From Dysgonamonadaceae bacterium (GTDB lineage: Bacteria; Bacteroidota; Bacteroidia; Bacteroidales; Dysgonomonadaceae): a DNA stretch of 64,000 nucleotides. The position numbers and the translations under genes were made by a program. The notes beneath the pieces are model-generated. The model saw nothing but the letters and a program-made list of their open reading frames with translations, made no database searches and was not told the DNA's origin. Shown here piece by piece: positions 1-7,403 of this stretch. Location of the stretch: contig JAIRUA010000013.1 of the NCBI GenBank assembly GCA_031254645.1, positions 1-64,000 of the forward strand. Direction: 5' to 3'. Position 1 is the first letter of the stretch. Every line of letters begins with the position of its first letter.

Positions 1-26
1 TTAGTGTGCGGTGTGTAGCAGAATAA
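1..26 (+). CDS. 3' tip of DGR variable target gene (partial)
   Basis: Only the last codons are in the window: they read SVRCVAE and then a TAA stop. The same codons end the core of each of the three template-like repeats at 1293-2041, and there as here the match stops at the final GAA codon. In diversity-generating retroelements this is where a variable repeat ends in the target gene. The SVRCVAE ending is typical of FISUMP-type C-type-lectin-like variable domains of Bacteroidota. The rest of the protein lies left of the window, so its size, export signal and role cannot be seen. The assignment as DGR target is an inference from the shared sequence and from the Avd and reverse transcriptase genes downstream. 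Confidence 0.8.
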
Positions 27-90: not shown

Positions 91-122
91 GGGTGATGAT
101 TTTAAGAGAAAAATCATCACCC
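91..122 (+). repeat. 12-bp perfect stem-loop
   Basis: Perfect 12-bp arms (91-102 and 111-122) with an 8-nt loop. Translation could formally open at 93 inside this hairpin, which is one reason to place the start of the next gene at 210 instead. Confidence 0.55.
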
Positions 123-209: not shown

Positions 210-674
210 ATGACTATTAAAGAAAAAATATATCATACGGATGCTTTTGCAGTTAACTTGTACAAAGAAGGCGTTTTTTGGACGGCTTATGAGCAAAGTG
301 CTTATGCCGTATGCCAAATAAAGCCGTATACTGCTCGCAAAAAATATGTAAAAGCGGTATCAGCCGAGGTAGTGAGCGTGGGATTTCCTGATAGTGTATT
401 GGAAAGTATTTTGTCGGCATTTGAAGTGTTGGAAAAAAGCGAACTGCAGGTGAATTTGAAAACACGCGAGCCGATAGATTTGAAAGTATTTGAAACATGG
501 AAATTGTCATTGCCTATTCAAGTAAGTGTGGATAAAATGGAAAAAGCCAAAGCGGGAATGCTTGAAAGCGAGTTGATAAACAAGCTTCGTTCTTTTGACC
601 TCTCAAACGCTACTCCAATGCAATGTATGATTTTTTTATCTTCGATAAAAAAAGAATTGAAAATTGAGAATTGA
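210..674 (+). CDS. DGR-linked protein of unknown function
   Basis: A 154-residue protein that I do not recognise. The start at MTIKEKIYHTDAF is chosen because the in-frame extension back to 93 runs through two hairpins and has low-complexity composition. It has no signal peptide or membrane segment. The first ~70 residues are rich in Tyr and Phe, and the rest looks helical. The last residues (KELKIEN) are encoded by the left arm of the inverted repeat at 655-731, so the natural C-terminus may have been altered by that repeat. It sits between the variable gene and the Avd gene on the same strand, so it is probably part of the DGR cassette, perhaps as an accessory factor. No function is claimed. 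Confidence 0.6.
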   Translation: MTIKEKIYHTDAFAVNLYKEGVFWTAYEQSAYAVCQIKPYTARKKYVKAVSAEVVSVGFPDSVLESILSAFEVLEKSELQVNLKTREPIDLKVFETWKLSLPIQVSVDKMEKAKAGMLESELINKLRSFDLSNATPMQCMIFLSSIKKELKIEN

Positions 675-741: not shown

Positions 742-1146
742 ATGGCTACTTATGATCAACTGCCTGTATACAAGGTTACATATGATTTATTGCTTCTTAT
801 CTTTCAAACGTGTCAAAATATGGAACGTGATTACAAATTTACCATTGGCGAAAATTTGAAAAAGGAAGTGATTGAGTTGATAGTAAACGTGTATCGTGCC
901 AATTGCCGCGAAGATAAACGCGACTTGATTGGTACGGCACGAGAAAATGCTGAAGTAACACGTTTGCTTTTGCGTCTTTTGCAAGATTTGAAACAAATCA
1001 AGTTAGAAAAATTTGTGGATATGAACGAAAAGTTGGAAAGCATCAGCAAGCAGTTGGCTGCGTGGTATAAAAAATCAAAAACATTTGAAGGTGAGAGTCG
1101 TAAGGGAGATTTTGAAAGAAATCTGTTTAGCGAGAGTGCCGATTAA
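742..1146 (+). CDS. avd: DGR accessory protein Avd (four-helix bundle)
   Basis: A 134-residue, Lys/Arg-rich, all-helical protein, close to the usual length of Avd-type four-helix-bundle (23S rRNA intervening-sequence family) proteins. Family features include the N-terminal YDQLPVYKVTYDLLL segment, a central GENLKKEVIELIVNVYRA helix and a LLRLLQDL helix followed by a lysine-rich loop. In studied DGRs Avd forms a pentamer that binds the reverse transcriptase and the template RNA and is needed for mutagenic cDNA synthesis. It lies directly before the template repeats and the reverse transcriptase on the same strand, the usual DGR order. The identification rests on sequence pattern and context. 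A stand-alone 23S-IVS protein is the alternative, but the context argues against it. Confidence 0.85.
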   Translation: MATYDQLPVYKVTYDLLLLIFQTCQNMERDYKFTIGENLKKEVIELIVNVYRANCREDKRDLIGTARENAEVTRLLLRLLQDLKQIKLEKFVDMNEKLESISKQLAAWYKKSKTFEGESRKGDFERNLFSESAD

Positions 1147-1159
1147 ATTCAGTAAGCCA

Positions 1160-1188
1160 CCTTTAATCAATGCATAGTTGATTAAGGG
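1160..1188 (+). terminator. Stem-loop behind avd
   Basis: An 11-bp stem (1160-1170 / 1178-1188) with a 7-nt loop, 14 bp behind the avd stop. There is no clean T-run, so it may be a weak terminator or an RNA processing structure between avd and the template repeats. Confidence 0.4.
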
Positions 1189-1292
1189 TAAAGTAGATCA
1201 GTGCTTACTTCTTACATTTTTAGTTGTTTTTTTGAAATTCGAGTAGTTTTCATCGGGTCAAATATTTCAAACAATGAAACATTGAATCCCTT

Positions 1293-1543
1293 TGAAACTA
1301 AAAAAAACTCTTTTTGCCCGCCGCCGGGTGGCGCAACAATACCAATGGTGCGCTCAACAATGCCGGCACGAACGGCAACTACTGGAGTAGTACCCCAAGT
1401 GGTACGACGAATGCGATGAACTTGAACTTCAATAGCGGCAACACGAACGTGAACAACAACAATCGCGCCAACGGCTTTAGTGTGCGGTGTGTAGCAGAAC
1501 TTAATGCAAATGTTTTACGAGTAAACGAATGGACAAGTAATTG
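1293..1543 (+). repeat. DGR template repeat, unit 1 (adenine-rich)
   Basis: First of three tandem ~250-bp units. The core (1326-1499) would read as a C-type-lectin-like end in which most variable positions are AAC or AAT codons, including four in a row near 1452-1463 just before a CGC codon. AAY codons at variable sites are the hallmark of a DGR template, because adenine-directed errors convert them to many residues. The shared lead-in has seven A where units 2 and 3 need five or six, so the reading frame from the lead-in is broken here, as expected for a non-coding template. At a few sites (1350 and near 1436) this unit has G where both other units have A, so it may not be fully pristine. 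Confidence 0.75.
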
Positions 1544-1790
1544 TGAAACTAAAAAAGCTCTTTTTGCCCGCCGCCGGGGTTCGCAATACCAGTGGTACGC
1601 TCAGCAATGCCGGCACGGTCGGCTACTACTGGAGTAGTACCCCGGATGGTACGACGTTTGCGTGGAGCTTGTACTTCGATAGCAGCATCACGAGCGTGGT
1701 CAGCACCGGTCGCGCTGTTGGACTTAGTGTGCGGTGTGTAGCAGAACTTAATGCAAATGTTTTATGAGTAAACAAGTGAATAGGTAATTG
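1544..1790 (+). repeat. Template-like repeat, unit 2 (adenine-depleted)
   Basis: Same flanks as unit 1 (TGAAACTAAAAAA lead-in and CTTAATGCAAATGTTTTA tail) but a diversified core (1576-1746). By hand alignment about two thirds of the differences from unit 1 fall on unit-1 adenines, for example AAC to GTC, TAC and AGC. One codon is missing early in the core, and a few non-adenine changes occur near the end. From a GTG at 1543 the frame is open and reads KLKKLFLPAAG through SVRCVAELNANVL, about 74 residues. It looks like a variable-repeat sequence sitting in a template-type flank. Whether it is transcribed as template, translated or inert is unknown. Confidence 0.7.
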
Positions 1791-2041
1791 TGAAACTAAA
1801 AAAACTCTTTTTGCCCGCCGCCGGGGGCCGCGCCGCTTCCAATGGTACGCTCAGCAATGCTGGTACGTTCGGCATCTACTTCAGTAGTACCCCGTTTGGT
1901 ACGGCGAATGCGATGATCTTGCACTTCAGTAGCAGCGCCACGCTCGTGCTCGACAGCGGCTTTCGCGCCAACGGCTTTAGTGTGCGGTGTGTAGCAGAAC
2001 TTAATGCAAATGTTTTACGAGTAAACGAGTGGACAAGTAAT
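1791..2041 (+). repeat. Template-like repeat, unit 3 (adenine-depleted)
   Basis: Third tandem unit, nearest the reverse transcriptase; core 1823-1999. It carries a different set of changes from unit 2. By hand count about 23 of 32 substitutions relative to unit 1 are at unit-1 adenines, with one extra codon before the shared CGCGCC. The frame from a GTG at 1790 is open through the core. The tail matches unit 1 closely (TTTTACGAGTAAACGA). A unit this close to the reverse transcriptase would normally be the template, yet it lacks most AAY codons. Confidence 0.7.
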
Positions 2042-2064
2042 TGGGTAACTTCTTGTAACTCATA

Positions 2065-2104
2065 ACTTGTTTACTTGTCTACTTGTCTACTTGTCTACTT
2101 GTCT
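2065..2104 (+). repeat. 8-bp tandem repeat in front of the RT gene
   Basis: Five consecutive copies of ACTTGTCT (the first reads ACTTGTTT) end 16 bp before the reverse transcriptase ATG. Tracts of this kind change copy number by slipped pairing, which would alter the spacing between the template array and the RT start. Confidence 0.8.
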
Positions 2105-2120
2105 ACTTAATACTAAATTT

Positions 2121-3329
2121 ATGTTTGAACAACAATTGAAATACGATTTATTTCAAGCTTATTACGATGCACGACGCAATAAACGTAATACTTGGAATCA
2201 GCTTCGTTTCGAAATTAACTACGAAAGCGAATTGTTTTTGCTTGCGGAGGAAATCTCGGAGCGGCGATATGATCTTCGTCCAAGTATCGCTTTCGTTATC
2301 AACGAACCGGTGAAACGAGAGATTCTTGCCGCCGATTTTCGCGACCGTGTTGTTCATCATCTTATTTTCAATTATACCAATCCGGAGCTTGATGCACAGT
2401 TTATTACCGACAGTTATAGTTGTCGGGTAGGTAAAGGTACGCATTATGGAATTGAGCGAGCAGCAGGATTTGTTCGTCAGTGCAGCGAAAATTATACCAA
2501 AGATTGTTATGTGCTGAAACTCGATATCAGGGGTTATTTTATGAGTATGAACAAGCATTTGCTTTGGCAAAAACTACAATCAATGCGCTCGTATTCGCTA
2601 AACGAAGAGATCAATGAGCAAAGCCGAACTACCGAAGCGTACACACAAGGCAAGGAAGAAACGATTTGGTATCTGTTGGACAAAGTGATTTGGAACGACC
2701 CGCGCAAGAATTGTATTGTCAAAGGGAAATTGTCTGATTGGGACGATTTACCACCGTCAAAAAGTTTATTTCATTCGGCAGCAGATTGCGGTTTACCGAT
2801 TGGTAATCTTACTTCGCAGTTATTTAGCAATGTGTATTTGCACGATTTTGATTGTTTTGTAAAAAATGATTTGGGCGTGGAATATTATGGCAGATATGTA
2901 GACGATTTTGTGTTGATACATCGTGATAAGGCATTTTTGCTCGATGCGCTCAATAAGATAAAACAACATTTGGCAGAGCATTCGGGTTTAATATTACACC
3001 CAAACAAAATTTATTTGCAGCATTACAGTAAAGGCTTTGCGTTTTTAGGTGCATATATTAAACCCCGCCGTTGCTACATCGGAAATCGTACGAAAAAGAA
3101 ATTTCGACAAGCCGTAGCCGAATCAAACCGCATACTTACTGCAAATAAACCGCATCGCGAAGATTTGGAAAAAGTACGCGCTACATTAAATTCTTATTTG
3201 GGCATTATGCAACATTTCAAAACGTATAACATTCGCCGAAAGACGCTGTTAGACAAGTCGCACGAGTTTTTTAAGTATGGGTATTTGGAGAAGGGATTAA
3301 CGAAGTATAAGTTGAAAGTTGAAAGTTGA
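2121..3329 (+). CDS. DGR reverse transcriptase
   Basis: A 402-residue reverse transcriptase of the usual DGR length. The start at MFEQQLKY is preferred over upstream TTG codons, which lie in the 8-bp repeat tract. Visible RT motifs are LDIRGYF (133-139, catalytic Asp135), LPIGNLTSQ (225-233) and the YVDD active site (259-262). The SQ motif is typical of DGR RTs. There is no maturase or endonuclease domain, which argues against a group II intron. It would copy the template RNA together with Avd, misinserting opposite adenine, and deliver the cDNA to the variable repeat that ends at position 26. The C-terminal residues (KLKVES) come from low-complexity GTTGAAA repeats, which suggests a recently altered end. 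Confidence 0.93.
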   Translation: MFEQQLKYDLFQAYYDARRNKRNTWNQLRFEINYESELFLLAEEISERRYDLRPSIAFVINEPVKREILAADFRDRVVHHLIFNYTNPELDAQFITDSYSCRVGKGTHYGIERAAGFVRQCSENYTKDCYVLKLDIRGYFMSMNKHLLWQKLQSMRSYSLNEEINEQSRTTEAYTQGKEETIWYLLDKVIWNDPRKNCIVKGKLSDWDDLPPSKSLFHSAADCGLPIGNLTSQLFSNVYLHDFDCFVKNDLGVEYYGRYVDDFVLIHRDKAFLLDALNKIKQHLAEHSGLILHPNKIYLQHYSKGFAFLGAYIKPRRCYIGNRTKKKFRQAVAESNRILTANKPHREDLEKVRATLNSYLGIMQHFKTYNIRRKTLLDKSHEFFKYGYLEKGLTKYKLKVES

Positions 3330-3418
3330 ATTGAAAATCGGCGTTAGCCAAAATGGCAGGCTTTCAGCTAATGAACAGTGCTTCTGCGCTTTCAATTTTC
3401 CATTTTCAATTAAAAAGT

Positions 3419-3537
3419 ACACACTCAATGTTTTGTTTGTATTTTTCTCTTTCTTGTACTACCAAGTACAAGAGTAGCAACACTAAAGTACAAACATATT
3501 GGTCATCCGGAATTCGTGAGAATACCGGATGTTTTTT
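3419..3537 (+). ncRNA. Duplicated element ending in GNRA hairpin terminator, copy A
   Basis: Begins ACACACTCAAT, contains CTCTTTCTT and CAAACATATT, and ends in a hairpin CATCCGGAATTC-GTGA-GAATACCGGATG with a run of six T. The GTGA loop is a GNRA tetraloop. Copy B at 4655-4752 keeps the same landmarks and changes stem bases while keeping pairing (G-T and T-G pairs instead of G-C and one mismatch). This looks like a transcribed, structured RNA or a conserved terminator module. No promoter is recognised, so the ncRNA call is tentative. The terminator part (3504-3537) is firm. Confidence 0.5.
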
Positions 3538-3607
3538 GATTCACTGTCCTCCGCTACCGCGCGATTATATCGCGTGGCTTACAAAGGGGATAAGATAACA
3601 ACAATCC

Positions 3608-3640
3608 TTGCCGTCCTTTGGTGGACGGTGGGGTACAAAA
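3608..3640. repeat. Short palindromic repeat, copy 2
   Basis: CCGTCC/GGACGG stem around TTTGGT, then GGGGTACAAAA. Clearly related to 142-173. Confidence 0.45.
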
Positions 3641-3765
3641 AGAAAGTTCTTTGACATATTGAGTTTTACCGAATTATAGTTTTATAGTTCGATAGTTGGT
3701 AGTTTTATAGCAAGTAGGCTTTAACTATTAACTATAAAGCTATCAAACTAAACGAAATTAATTTG

Positions 3766-3773
3766 TATCTTTG
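3766..3773 (+). promoter_or_regulatory. -7 promoter element of the antitoxin-toxin operon
   Basis: TATCTTTG fits the Bacteroidota -7 consensus TAnnTTTG and lies 26 bp before the antitoxin ATG. The -33 element is less clear. Confidence 0.6.
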
Positions 3774-3798
3774 CAAACATAAAATTCTAGAAAGAATT

Positions 3799-4008
3799 AT
3801 GGGAGCAATAATATTAAATACAAACAAAGCACTGGACTTAAGAGTGATTGCCGCTCTTGCTCGTGAGTTGAATATTGATATGTTCACTATCAGTAAAGAG
3901 GAGCAAGAAAAAATTGAAGATCTGCGACTACTTAGCTTTATGCAAAATGCACGAAAAGAAGGTCTTGCAGATACAGAGGAAACACTTTCAAAACTTGGAA
4001 TAGTGTGA
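3799..4008 (+). CDS. Antitoxin of a ParE/RelE-type pair
   Basis: A 69-residue protein. The ATG at 3799 (MGAIILNTNKALDLRV) is preferred over an upstream TTG because it follows the -7 element at a normal distance. Small, acidic towards the C-terminus (EEQEKIEDLR, DTEETLSK), with an N-terminal part that could form a DNA-binding dimer. It overlaps the toxin gene by one base (TGATG), the tight coupling usual for antitoxin-first pairs. It should neutralise the toxin by binding and repress its own promoter. The antitoxin family could not be named from sequence alone. Confidence 0.75.
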   Translation: MGAIILNTNKALDLRVIAALARELNIDMFTISKEEQEKIEDLRLLSFMQNARKEGLADTEETLSKLGIV

Positions 4009-4274
4009 TGGAGGTTGCATTTACTAAAACATTTTCTAAACAAATAGACAACATTCGCGATAACTTGCTGAAATCAAAATTGGCACAAGTTGTTCGTGAT
4101 GTAATGAAAGCAAAAGCATTACAAGATATCGCAAATTTGAAGAAATTGAAAGGGCACTTAACTGCGTATAGAATAAGAATTGGCGATTATCGGGTGGGCT
4201 TGTTTATAGAAGAAGGGGTGGTTACTTTTGCTTACCTAGCTCATCGAAAGGATATCTATAGTCGATTTCCTTGA
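4008..4274 (+). CDS. ParE/RelE-superfamily toxin
   Basis: An 88-residue basic protein with the typical RelE/ParE C-terminal pattern: YRIRIGDYRVGL, then VTFAYLAHRKDIYSRFP. These toxins either cleave mRNA at the ribosome (RelE) or poison gyrase (ParE), and sequence inspection alone does not decide between them. The HRKDIY ending is common to both. Translationally coupled to the antitoxin. The pair is bracketed by two direct copies of a hairpin element (3419-3537 and 4655-4752), which suggests that the module arrived or was duplicated as a unit. Confidence 0.85.
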   Translation: MEVAFTKTFSKQIDNIRDNLLKSKLAQVVRDVMKAKALQDIANLKKLKGHLTAYRIRIGDYRVGLFIEEGVVTFAYLAHRKDIYSRFP

Positions 4275-4789
4275 CGCTCGAAAACAAATGTCTCACTTTT
4301 GCGATGCGGTTATAATGTGCGCCGTGCCAATTATAAAAAAATGGCAATCATTTAATAGTATAACAGACTTTACAGTTTGTGTATATCGAGTAGTAGCTGC
4401 AAAGTATGATTATGGATAATTAGTTTTTTAGAAAAACAATCACTATCTATACAAAAAATCGGTAAAATTCAATATGAGTTTTACCGATTTGTTTTATTCC
4501 CTTGTTGGCGCAGTTTTGTGGTTGCTGAGCGTAGTCGAGGTACAAATTGTGCCCTAAACAAAAAAGACACAGATTATAAATCTGCGTTGGTGAGCGGAAA
4601 AAGCATTGAAACAATAGCTCTGCCGTCCGGCAAAGGACGACAGAGCACATAGACACACACTCAATTATAGTTGTACTCTTCTCTTTCTTAACAACAAGGA
4701 AAGTGCAAACATATTTATCATCCGGTATTCGTGAGAATGTCGGATGTTTTTTGATTTCCGGAAGTCCACCTAAACTAAAAAAAATGAAA
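4275..4789. other. Intergenic region with hairpins, no gene seen
   Basis: Contains a 12-bp stem (4456-4467 / 4479-4490, AAATCGGTAAAA and its complement) that may end the toxin-antitoxin transcript, a CTGAGCGTAGTCGAGGTACAA motif near 4525 also present in variant form at 54594, a 12-bp stem at 4617-4646 (GCTCTGCCGTCC type) and hairpin element copy B at 4655-4752. Confidence 0.6.
4655..4752 (+). ncRNA. Duplicated element ending in GNRA hairpin terminator, copy B
   Basis: Same order of landmarks as copy A (ACACACTCAAT, CTCTTTCTT, GCAAACATATT) and the same hairpin with a GTGA loop and six T (4719-4752). The stem bases differ but still pair. It points towards the 3' end of the minus-strand GH43 gene. 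Confidence 0.5.
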
Positions 4790-5773
4790 CTATCTCGTCT
4801 GTATCACCATTTGAATGGTTCCGTCTTCGTTGAAAAACAATTTATCGACACAAATGGAGCGAAGATTTGTAATACCGCCCGAAAGATCGGCTGTATGATA
4901 GAAAACATACCATTGTCCTTTGTATTCTACTACCGAACCGTGGCTTGTATCACTGCTTTGTACATCTAAGAACACTCCTTTGGATTCAAATGGTCCTAAT
5001 GGATTATCGCTGATGGCATATTGCATACGGTTGCGATTTCCTACGCCTTCAACTCTATGGTTATCGGCATACGTCATATAATAAATGCCGTTTCTTTTGA
5101 ACATCCAAGCACCTTCGTGGAAATCATAGAGACCTTCAATCATTCGCAATGGCTCTGCCATTTCAATCATATTGTCAGCCAATCTTCCGCCGGCAAGCCT
5201 GTCGCCACCACCGTAAAAGAAATAGATGGTACCATCGCAATCTTTGAAAAGATGCGGATCAATCATAGCGTATGCTTCTTCACCTTCAAATAGTCCTTCC
5301 AACCAATGGTCGAGTACCACAAAATCTCTATCGGGATAATTGCTCACAGCAATTCCAACTTTCCAGTTGCTATTCCAAGGATTATCACTTGGGTGTGGAA
5401 AATAAAAGTAATATTTCCCATCTTTGTACATACAATCGGGTGCCCACATAAAGGTTGCACCATTTGCCAACGGTTTACCCCAAGGTACATCGGCAGCTTC
5501 TACAATTTGTCCGTGGTCAATCCAATTGACCATATCGTCGGTTGAAAACACGTGGTATTTATCCATCAAATCACACCCACGGGGCGGCGCAATGTCTTGT
5601 GATGGATATACATATAAGCGTCCGTCTTTCCACACACGTGCCGAAGGATCAGCAGTGAACATATGGGTTATAAACGGATTGGGACCTAAAACAACCTCTT
5701 CTGTTGTATTTTTTTTAGTTTGGCAGCTCACTATTGTTGCTATTACAAATGCTGCGAGTAAAAATTTTCTCAT
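4790..5773 (-). CDS. GH43-family glycosidase lipoprotein
   Basis: A 327-residue five-bladed beta-propeller glycosidase of family GH43 (beta-xylosidase/alpha-arabinofuranosidase type). Signal peptide with lipobox ending at Cys17. The three expected acidic residues are visible: Asp42 in TADPSARVWKDG (base), Asp172 in IDPHLF (pKa modulator) and Glu220 in FHEGAWMFKRNG (acid). It probably trims arabinose, xylose or related side chains from the glycan taken up by this locus. Last gene of the minus-strand operon that starts at 16201, 26 bp behind the GH71/99-like gene. The exact sugar cannot be read from the sequence. Confidence 0.9.
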   Translation of the reverse strand: MRKFLLAAFVIATIVSCQTKKNTTEEVVLGPNPFITHMFTADPSARVWKDGRLYVYPSQDIAPPRGCDLMDKYHVFSTDDMVNWIDHGQIVEAADVPWGKPLANGATFMWAPDCMYKDGKYYFYFPHPSDNPWNSNWKVGIAVSNYPDRDFVVLDHWLEGLFEGEEAYAMIDPHLFKDCDGTIYFFYGGGDRLAGGRLADNMIEMAEPLRMIEGLYDFHEGAWMFKRNGIYYMTYADNHRVEGVGNRNRMQYAISDNPLGPFESKGVFLDVQSSDTSHGSVVEYKGQWYVFYHTADLSGGITNLRSICVDKLFFNEDGTIQMVIQTR

Positions 5774-5798
5774 TGTCTATTTTAAATCTTTAAACTTA

Positions 5799-7403
5799 CT
5801 AACGTACCGGTAGTGTTCGATTCAATGGTATTTCGCCTCTCAACATCAAACGCGCCTGCCCTGAAAGCCACAAATAATGGTCGGTTGGCAAATGGTTTTC
5901 GATACCGTGAAAATCACCGAATCTATTATACAAATCCATTGCACTGATACTCCAATCGCCGTTGATAACTGTATTGGCGGGCCAAGGAAAAGCAGGTGCA
6001 GGATTGGGCAAGTTGGTTACTTGATTCCGCCCAATAGAATAACTGCCTCCTCTGCGTGTTACGAAATAGTCTTGCGTTGGTCTGTTGCTCGGCACTTCAT
6101 TCTGTCTCAACATTTTGAAAAGGGCAGTACCTTCATCAATTTCATCAAACATTGCCAAATAAATCATTTTGGCACCGGATTCAATATGATGAAATACCTG
6201 ATTCCACAAAAATTGTCCTCCATGTCGCTCGTTTCTATGATTGTGATGCGGATACATTCCCAAATCCGAAGATCCGGCGAATGCCAATGGCGCATATTCA
6301 ACACCATTTGTATTACACCAAGCAAGGTCATCGATCACTAACTGATGGAAATTATTAAAATTACTCATACCATATCTACCTACAAACCAAGGCAGAATAA
6401 CATCTGATTTTCTAATAATATCGTGAAAACGAGGATCCGAAACGGCATCACGGTCTAATGTGCGCCAATGTGTGGGCACGCCTAACATAATGCTAAAACC
6501 CAAATCTTTTAATCCACTGATGAGGAAATCCAAATCATCAAGCGAGTAAGGACGATTGTCGTTAAACCCTACTCCCCACACAGCGATAAGGGGTTTACCA
6601 CGCTCATACAGATAAAATCTTTGATGATTACGATCCAACAAACGGTATTGTTCCATAATCCATTTTGCATCGTCTAATGTTCTCTGAAAGTATGTCATTA
6701 CCGGAGTACTGCGATCCATACTACTCAAGTCATACATCACACAAATAGCACGCTGATGCTGGTTTGATGCTGCCATCGCATGACCCAGCACTGTGTTGAA
6801 ATGGTCTTCTCCCATTCGATTATTGATCACCTCGCCGATGAAACGTTGCATAAACGCACCATCGATGCCATATTCTTGCATCCACTTGAAATGGAGCATT
6901 ACCGTAGAACGGTCGTAGCTGCTAAAAACGGTAGCATGTTCGCCATTCGGCAATACAAACGGTACAAACTCCCGATTGCCGCTTGTTATATTTGTCAATT
7001 GTTCGCCCGGAATGTATCTCACGGCGTATTCACGCATATCGGGCCACATATCTATTGAGTTTCTTCTCACACCGGGTGCAAACTGTTCATGCTCACGATA
7101 GTGATACCACTTCACATTTTCGGCAGTGCTATGTAGGCAAGTACCGGGTGCTGCAGTACTTGTTGGGCAAACGGCACCCGGAGGACAGCAAAACCAACCT
7201 TGGTAGCCGGTCATTACCAAACCGCGATAAGTATTGAATGGTTCACCGGGTTTGTGCGGCTCGAAGCCCAAATCATTGTACGGTGGACCCGGAGGTTCCG
7301 GTCTTGGTGGCGCCGGCGGTATAATATCTTCTTTCTCGCCGCAAGCTGTTGCAAACAGCAGCACCGCGAATATAACTAAACTGTAAATTATTTTGAACTT
7401 CAT
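5799..7403 (-). CDS. GH71/99-like glycoside hydrolase lipoprotein
   Basis: A 534-residue secreted lipoprotein (lipobox Cys21) with a Pro-rich linker (29-43) and a TIM-barrel catalytic part that starts at GLVMTGYQGWF (61-71). FDEIDEGTA (419-427) matches the paired-glutamate signature of GH99 and GH71/99-like enzymes, with Glu421 and Glu424 as likely catalytic residues. Family GH99 members are endo-alpha-mannosidases or mannanases. Many Bacteroidota GH71/99-like proteins are only predicted. The cluster also encodes a GH92 alpha-mannosidase, which supports but does not prove a mannose-containing substrate. Followed by the GH43 gene and preceded by a 236-bp gap with a palindrome. Confidence 0.8.
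   Translation of the reverse strand: MKFKIIYSLVIFAVLLFATACGEKEDIIPPAPPRPEPPGPPYNDLGFEPHKPGEPFNTYRGLVMTGYQGWFCCPPGAVCPTSTAAPGTCLHSTAENVKWYHYREHEQFAPGVRRNSIDMWPDMREYAVRYIPGEQLTNITSGNREFVPFVLPNGEHATVFSSYDRSTVMLHFKWMQEYGIDGAFMQRFIGEVINNRMGEDHFNTVLGHAMAASNQHQRAICVMYDLSSMDRSTPVMTYFQRTLDDAKWIMEQYRLLDRNHQRFYLYERGKPLIAVWGVGFNDNRPYSLDDLDFLISGLKDLGFSIMLGVPTHWRTLDRDAVSDPRFHDIIRKSDVILPWFVGRYGMSNFNNFHQLVIDDLAWCNTNGVEYAPLAFAGSSDLGMYPHHNHRNERHGGQFLWNQVFHHIESGAKMIYLAMFDEIDEGTALFKMLRQNEVPSNRPTQDYFVTRRGGSYSIGRNQVTNLPNPAPAFPWPANTVINGDWSISAMDLYNRFGDFHGIENHLPTDHYLWLSGQARLMLRGEIPLNRTLPVR

What the first reader, a model, noticed from the sequence alone, without database searches (positions are those of the whole stretch)
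1293..2041. Three tandem DGR template-like repeats between avd and the reverse transcriptase
A DGR normally has one template repeat here. This locus has three ~250-bp tandem units with shared flanks. Several templates could feed different variable genes, or the array could be a store of past variants.
Basis: partly seen in the sequence, partly recalled or inferred. Interest (0 to 1): 0.8.

Follow-up and report, generated by a model that had tools for sequence, protein, structure and literature searches.

The report
Mutated template copies in a retroelement
A bacterial mutation-making retroelement carries three tandem copies of its template; the first still looks like a working template, and the other two bear the element's own fingerprint (changes at adenines), so the supposedly protected template has somehow acquired mutated copies of itself.

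Summary
The array is real: three tandem units (1293-1543, 1544-1790, 1791-2043) lie between avd and a DGR reverse transcriptase. They are not three equivalent templates. Unit 1 is adenine-rich (18 Asn AAY codons); units 2 and 3 keep 2 and 4. About half of unit 1's core adenines are changed in each (23/52 and 25/54, against 11/137 and 10/138 other bases; P=6e-8 and 3e-9), in one direction only. Units 2 and 3 are thus variable-repeat-like sequence held in template-type flanks. No variable repeat in this MAG derives from them. One RNA leader (Rfam RT-7, sub-threshold) precedes unit 1; one strong hairpin follows unit 3. Tandem template arrays recur in relatives (7 of 96 avd-RT loci, 2-11 units). 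In one relative, two tandem templates demonstrably feed different variable genes; in three two-unit arrays the adjacent variable repeat was copied from the avd-proximal unit, as predicted for unit 1 here. Best reading: local triplication, unit 1 working, units 2-3 overwritten by adenine-mutated sequence (self-homing or copy-back from the variable gene). Archive and multi-template functions are not shown here; the variable gene is cut off by the contig end and no second strain was available.

The parts
1..26 (+). 3' end of the variable repeat and stop codon of an upstream variable gene, cut off by the contig start
   Evidence: Positions 1-23 are identical to the end of all three units; the window is G000:C17:1-64000; followed by taaattcg, not cttaatgc
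91..122 (+). Perfect 13-bp inverted repeat (6-nt loop) downstream of the variable repeat, like the target-side stem-loop of DGRs
   Evidence: same element after the second variable gene on contig C3; none of this kind next to units 1 and 2
210..674 (+). ORF1, 154 aa, conserved upstream of avd in related DGRs, no Pfam/NCBIfam/PHROG match
742..1146 (+). avd accessory gene
   Evidence: bAvd PF22296 E=6e-13; PHROG 3206 Avd E=8e-22
1091..1215 (+). RT-7-like RNA leader (sub-threshold), once only, upstream of unit 1
   Evidence: cmscan RF03028 E=4e-6, 35.6 bits against gathering 116.8; E=9.6e-5 in the whole window
1293..1543 (+). Unit 1: adenine-rich template repeat (core 1308-1499)
1544..1790 (+). 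Unit 2: adenine-mutated copy (core 1558-1746)
   Evidence: 23/52 As and 11/137 other bases differ from unit 1, P=6e-8
1791..2043 (+). Unit 3: adenine-mutated copy (core 1805-1999)
   Evidence: 25/54 As and 10/138 other bases differ from unit 1, P=3e-9
2017..2094 (+). Strong hairpin joining the 3' flank of unit 3 to the pre-RT spacer (ACTTGTCT repeats); not available to units 1 or 2
   Evidence: fold -33.5 kcal/mol, z=-5.3, against z=-0.45 and 0.13 for unit 1 and 2 flanks; inverted repeat
2121..3329 (+). DGR reverse transcriptase (402 aa)
   Evidence: RVT_1 E=4e-15; IGNLTSQ and YVDD shared with DGR relatives

Best explanation
This is a chromosomal diversity-generating retroelement (order: variable gene, ORF1, avd, template, RT) whose template region was locally triplicated, apparently at a TTG microhomology. 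The duplicated block is only the template plus 15 bp on the left and about 44 bp on the right. Unit 1, next to avd and its RNA leader, is most likely the working template. The cores of units 2 and 3, but not their flanks, have been overwritten by adenine-mutated sequence. Either mutated cDNA homed into the duplicate templates, or a mutated variable repeat was copied back into them by recombination; I slightly favour the second. They are most likely by-products with little or no template role today. Shown: the array, the adenine-specific one-way differences confined to the core, the template-type flanks, and the lack of variable repeats derived from units 2/3 in this assembly. Inferred: which unit is copied into cDNA, the overwriting route, and the absence of function.
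For: Adenine-specific, directional change from unit 1 to units 2/3. AAY-codon As changed 41/70 and other As 7/36, like the 103 VR-TR pairs of related loci (0.52 and 0.16). The 68-nt 3' flanks of units 1 and 3 differ by one base. All units carry the TR-type flank gcagaacttaatgc, while the gene side reads gcagaataaattcg. No variable repeat fits units 2/3: the two best candidates, on C3 and C1, have 32-45 non-A mismatches to units 2/3 against 16 and 20 to unit 1. In L136, L147 and L159 the adjacent variable repeat fits the avd-proximal unit (13 A/1 other, 14/0, 17/0) and not unit 2. The RT-7 leader is present once only, before unit 1. For the copy-back route: unit 3's core has more non-A differences than its flanks (10/138 and 1/98, P=0.03), its indels are whole codons, and the 5'-flank A-run is almost unmutated.
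Against: The variable gene next door is missing from the assembly, so unit 1's role is by analogy. The strong 3' hairpin, which may correspond to the spacer where bRT-Avd binds and cDNA starts in BPP-1 (PMC12875486), is attached to unit 3, not unit 1. Unit 1 is itself not pristine (codons GCG, GGC and AGT where units 2/3 suggest ancestral A). In L152 an A-rich unit lacks its own RT-7 leader, so lack of a leader does not prove a dead unit. Non-A differences (about 7.6%) are ten times those of the VR-TR pairs (0.8%), so units 2/3 are old or came from another template version.
Confidence: 0.55

Rival explanations
1. Mutagenic self-homing: cDNA from unit 1 lands directly in tandem template copies because they share full homology, so duplicated templates mutate each other. 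(A sub-route of the best explanation, without the variable gene as intermediate.)
For: Adenine signature. In L081 two 96%-identical units each carry A-type changes absent from the other.
Against: Units have no gene-type (IMH-side) flank or adjacent target stem-loop; the A-run in the 5' flank is almost untouched; core non-A excess in unit 3.
Confidence: 0.3
2. Multi-template array: all three units are transcribed and serve different variable genes.
For: Shown in relative L147: 8 dispersed variable repeats fit unit 2 better (e.g. 15 A/0 other against 16/10) and 11 fit unit 1. Arrays with a leader for several units exist in L146, L152, L159 and L081, and L148 has seven units.
Against: In the window genome no variable repeat fits units 2/3; units 2/3 have 2 and 4 AAY codons against 18; only one leader is present.
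Confidence: 0.13
3. Silent archive: units 2/3 are stored past variants that can be recombined back into the expressed gene, in the manner of pilS or vls cassettes.
For: Units 2/3 are variable-repeat-like, in frame and without stops, with intact homology at both ends.
Against: No read-out seen; template design alone (AAY codons cannot mutate to stops at their adenines) explains the open frame; the expressed variable repeat is missing.
Confidence: 0.12
4. Assembly artefact: strain variants or graph loops stacked in tandem.
For: Fragmented assembly; the contig breaks inside the variable repeat.
Against: Array-specific unit-unit junction and private flank mutations in unit 2; independent arrays in other genomes.
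Confidence: 0.06

Closest known systems
[quoted passage not shown]
   Same: Avd, DGR-type RT, A-rich template between them, adenine-specific changes, stem-loop after the variable gene
   Different: Three tandem template-region copies, two of them already adenine-mutated; BPP-1 has one
Multi-TR DGRs (e.g. Stenotrophomonas SKA14 with two TRs, PMC6642488; multiple TRs in T. denticola metagenomes, PMC4891356)
   Same: More than one template-like repeat in one DGR system
   Different: Those papers count TRs as templates; the passages read do not describe tandem template copies carrying adenine-type mutations
Tandem template arrays found here (L136, L147, L148, L159, L081, L152, L146)
   Same: Two or more units upstream of the RT in the same RT clade
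   Different: There the unit usually includes more flanking RNA, often the leader; here only the template core plus about 60 bp was multiplied
Silent cassette systems (pilE/pilS, vlsE) (recalled knowledge)
   Same: Non-expressed variants beside an expressed homologous site
   Different: No evidence of transfer here; variation is made by a mutagenic RT

Membership tests
Diversity-generating retroelement (DGR) | Reverse transcriptase of DGR type (xGxxxSQ, YxDD) | tested here: met
   IGNLTSQ and YVDD in the alignment of 11 relatives; RVT_1
Diversity-generating retroelement (DGR) | Accessory protein Avd next to the template | tested here: met
Diversity-generating retroelement (DGR) | Variable repeat in a gene differing from the template mainly at template adenines | tested here: inconclusive
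   The adjacent variable gene is cut off at window position 1 (23 bp identical); best whole variable repeat (C3) shows 20 A and 16 other differences, an aged pair
Diversity-generating retroelement (DGR) | Inverted repeat downstream of the target repeat | tested here: met
   91-122, and the same at C3
Multi-template DGR array | Two or more adenine-rich template units | tested here: not met
   18, 2 and 4 AAY codons in units 1-3
Multi-template DGR array | Variable repeats in the genome assignable to different units | tested here: not met
   None fits unit 2 or 3; genome 92% complete, so not final
Silent variant archive | Non-expressed units that are variants of the expressed repeat | tested here: inconclusive
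   Variable-repeat-like, but the expressed repeat is missing
Silent variant archive | Transfer of tracts from array to expressed gene | not testable with these tools
   Needs population sequencing
Rfam RT-7 RNA | Score at or above the gathering threshold | tested here: not met
   35.6 bits against 116.8; placement matches the (also sub-threshold) RT-7 hits of related DGRs

The most novel reading that the evidence does not exclude
DGR templates are not immune to their own mutagenesis. Template regions multiply into arrays whose members take up adenine-mutated sequence (by self-homing or copy-back from the variable gene), so the element evolves or archives its templates; in Alistipes this has grown into 11 units plus dozens of dispersed leader-plus-template cassettes.
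Probability: 0.25. Interest if true: 0.75.

Novelty: new variant of a known kind. Interest (0 to 1): 0.5.

Why it matters
DGRs are described as one-way: a fixed template mutates a gene. Template-side copies that carry the adenine fingerprint show that mutated sequence can reach the template side, which bears on how templates evolve and how the system avoids erasing itself. The comparison also shows tandem template arrays as a recurrent DGR layout and gives a direct case (L147) of two tandem templates dividing up a family of variable genes.

Tried and rejected
Ordinary drift as the cause of unit differences: rejected, adenine-specific and one-way. Remnants of variable genes: rejected, flanks are template-type. 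Assigning any of about 27 FISUMP-like repeats in the genome to units 2 or 3: none fits. Same-species or same-genus strain for comparison: none among 101 family genomes. Viral copies of the unit end: none. Missing half of the variable gene at another contig end: not found. Per-unit leader or per-unit promoter and terminator in the window: not found. Assigning variable repeats to the seven units of L148: not clean because units differ in length. The source paper for RT-7 was not held.

Full report
Observation. The window is the first 64 kb of contig C17 of a 31-contig, 92%-complete genome. The contig starts inside the 3' end of a variable repeat: positions 1-23 equal the end of all three units. 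Next come ORF1 (210-674), avd (742-1146), the array, and a DGR-type reverse transcriptase (2121-3329). Tandem Repeats Finder and self-comparison both give three units of 247-253 bp over 1293-2050.

Units are not equivalent. Aligned codon by codon, unit 1 reads ...WRNNTNGALNNAGTNGNYWSSTPSGTTNAMNLNFNSGNTNVNNNNRANGFSVRCVAE, with 18 Asn AAY codons. Units 2 and 3 keep 2 and 4. Unit 1 to unit 2: 23 of 52 adenines and 11 of 137 other bases differ (P=6e-8). Unit 1 to unit 3: 25 of 54 and 10 of 138 (P=3e-9). In the reverse direction there is no adenine excess. The adenine excess lies in the template core: the 68-nt 3' flank has 1 (unit 3) or 6 (unit 2) substitutions, and the 5' flank 0 or 1. That is the mark of DGR mutagenesis, not of drift, and it sits in template-type flanks: all units continue gcagaacttaatgc, while the gene side continues gcagaataaattcg.

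Calibration. In 103 VR-TR pairs from related loci (chosen for at least 85% of differences at template adenines), 52% of AAY adenines, 16% of other adenines and 0.8% of other bases differ. Units 2/3 show 59%, 19% and 7.6%. The adenine pattern matches real variable repeats, while the non-adenine level is ten times higher. So units 2/3 are old, or descend from a somewhat different template version. At several codons unit 1 itself seems to have lost ancestral adenines (for example GCG against ACG in units 2 and 3 and the C3 variable repeat).

Targets. None of about 27 FISUMP-like repeats in the genome fits unit 2 or 3; the closest two (C3, C1) fit unit 1 with 20 A/16 other and 30 A/20 other differences. 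C3 carries a decayed sister DGR: a 1342-aa variable gene with the same downstream inverted repeat, and an ORF1 fragment fused to the last 100 residues of the RT, with avd, template and most of the RT gone.

Anatomy. One RT-7-like RNA leader (Rfam RF03028, below the curated threshold) precedes unit 1. One very stable hairpin (z=-5.3) joins the end of unit 3 to the pre-RT spacer; units 1 and 2 lack it. The triplicated block is thus the template without its leader or full spacer. In BPP-1, the spacer between TR and brt recruits bRT-Avd and primes cDNA (PMC12875486), which would point to unit 3. The three comparable arrays point instead to the avd-proximal unit. This conflict is unresolved and is the main weakness.

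Related arrays. Among 96 related loci with avd upstream of the RT, seven show repeats confined to the avd-RT interval (L142 is a weak case). Two more arrays lie on contigs where no avd was found upstream (L152, L153). In L136, L147 and L159 the variable repeat next door differs from the avd-proximal unit almost only at adenines (13 A/1 other, 14/0, 17/0) and fits unit 2 poorly. In L147 about 20 further variable repeats are spread over the genome; 8 fit unit 2 better (down to 15 A/0 other), 11 (counting the one next door) fit unit 1, and 2 are undecided. Seven of eight checked end open frames of 268-482 residues, most beginning with a signal-peptide-like stretch. In L081 two 96%-identical units each carry adenine-type changes relative to the other. 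L152 holds three variable-repeat-like units and one A-rich unit; L148 holds seven units. L146 (Alistipes) holds 11, most with an RT-7 leader.

Mechanism. Local tandem triplication (TTG microhomology at the breakpoints) made extra template copies. Adenine-mutated sequence then replaced the cores of units 2 and 3. Two routes fit: cDNA homing into the duplicates, or recombination copying a mutated variable repeat back. Codon-sized indels, a variable-repeat-like adenine pattern, an almost untouched A-run just outside the variable-repeat homology, and excess non-adenine divergence in unit 3's core relative to its flanks (P=0.03) lean toward copy-back, weakly. Unit 1 most likely still serves as template (inferred).

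Known work. DGRs with more than one TR have been counted: in PMC6642488, 216 of 271 multi-VR DGRs have a single TR, leaving 55 with more; PMC4891356 reports multiple TRs in T. denticola metagenomes. The passages read in these and in PMC8144416, PMC3521204 and PMC10907252 describe no tandem template array with adenine-mutated members. Most subscription papers were not searchable, so novelty is provisional.

Limits. One fragmented genome, no reads, no second strain, variable gene truncated, RNA elements predicted only.

Noticed in passing
L146 (Alistipes senegalensis MAG, JAMPGH010000001.1) 930-5920 and genome handle G150: 11 noncoding template-like units between avd and the RT, plus 36 more copies dispersed through the 2-Mb genome (47 matches in all), mostly between genes, with sharp common ends; 13 of 16 sampled dispersed loci have an RT-7 RNA match, mostly directly upstream of the cassette. 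They look like a scattered set of leader-plus-template cassettes and deserve their own study.
   Followed up: partly
L147 5362-5891 and genome G152 (Alphaproteobacteria MAG): Two tandem templates and about 20 dispersed variable repeats in predicted secreted proteins, most repeats assignable to one or the other unit.
   Followed up: partly
L148 860-2646 (Pseudomonadota MAG): Seven tandem, mostly A-rich template units of different length between avd and the RT.
   Followed up: partly
L070 2592-10118 (G000 contig C3:48591-56117): Decayed sister DGR: large variable gene kept, avd, template and most of the RT lost by a deletion that fuses ORF1 to the RT tail.
   Followed up: partly
window 91-122 and L070 6688-6719: The inverted repeats after the two variable genes share the stem but have the loop in opposite orientation.
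   Followed up: no
window 210-674: ORF1, conserved before avd in relatives (38-41% identity in the closest), matches no family in Pfam, NCBIfam or PHROGs.
   Followed up: no
window 3799-4274: Likely ParE-type toxin (PF05016) with a small upstream partner directly after the DGR.
   Followed up: no
G000:C3:23488-23686: A more distant FISUMP gene whose last 26 bp match the template end almost exactly although the rest does not.
   Followed up: no
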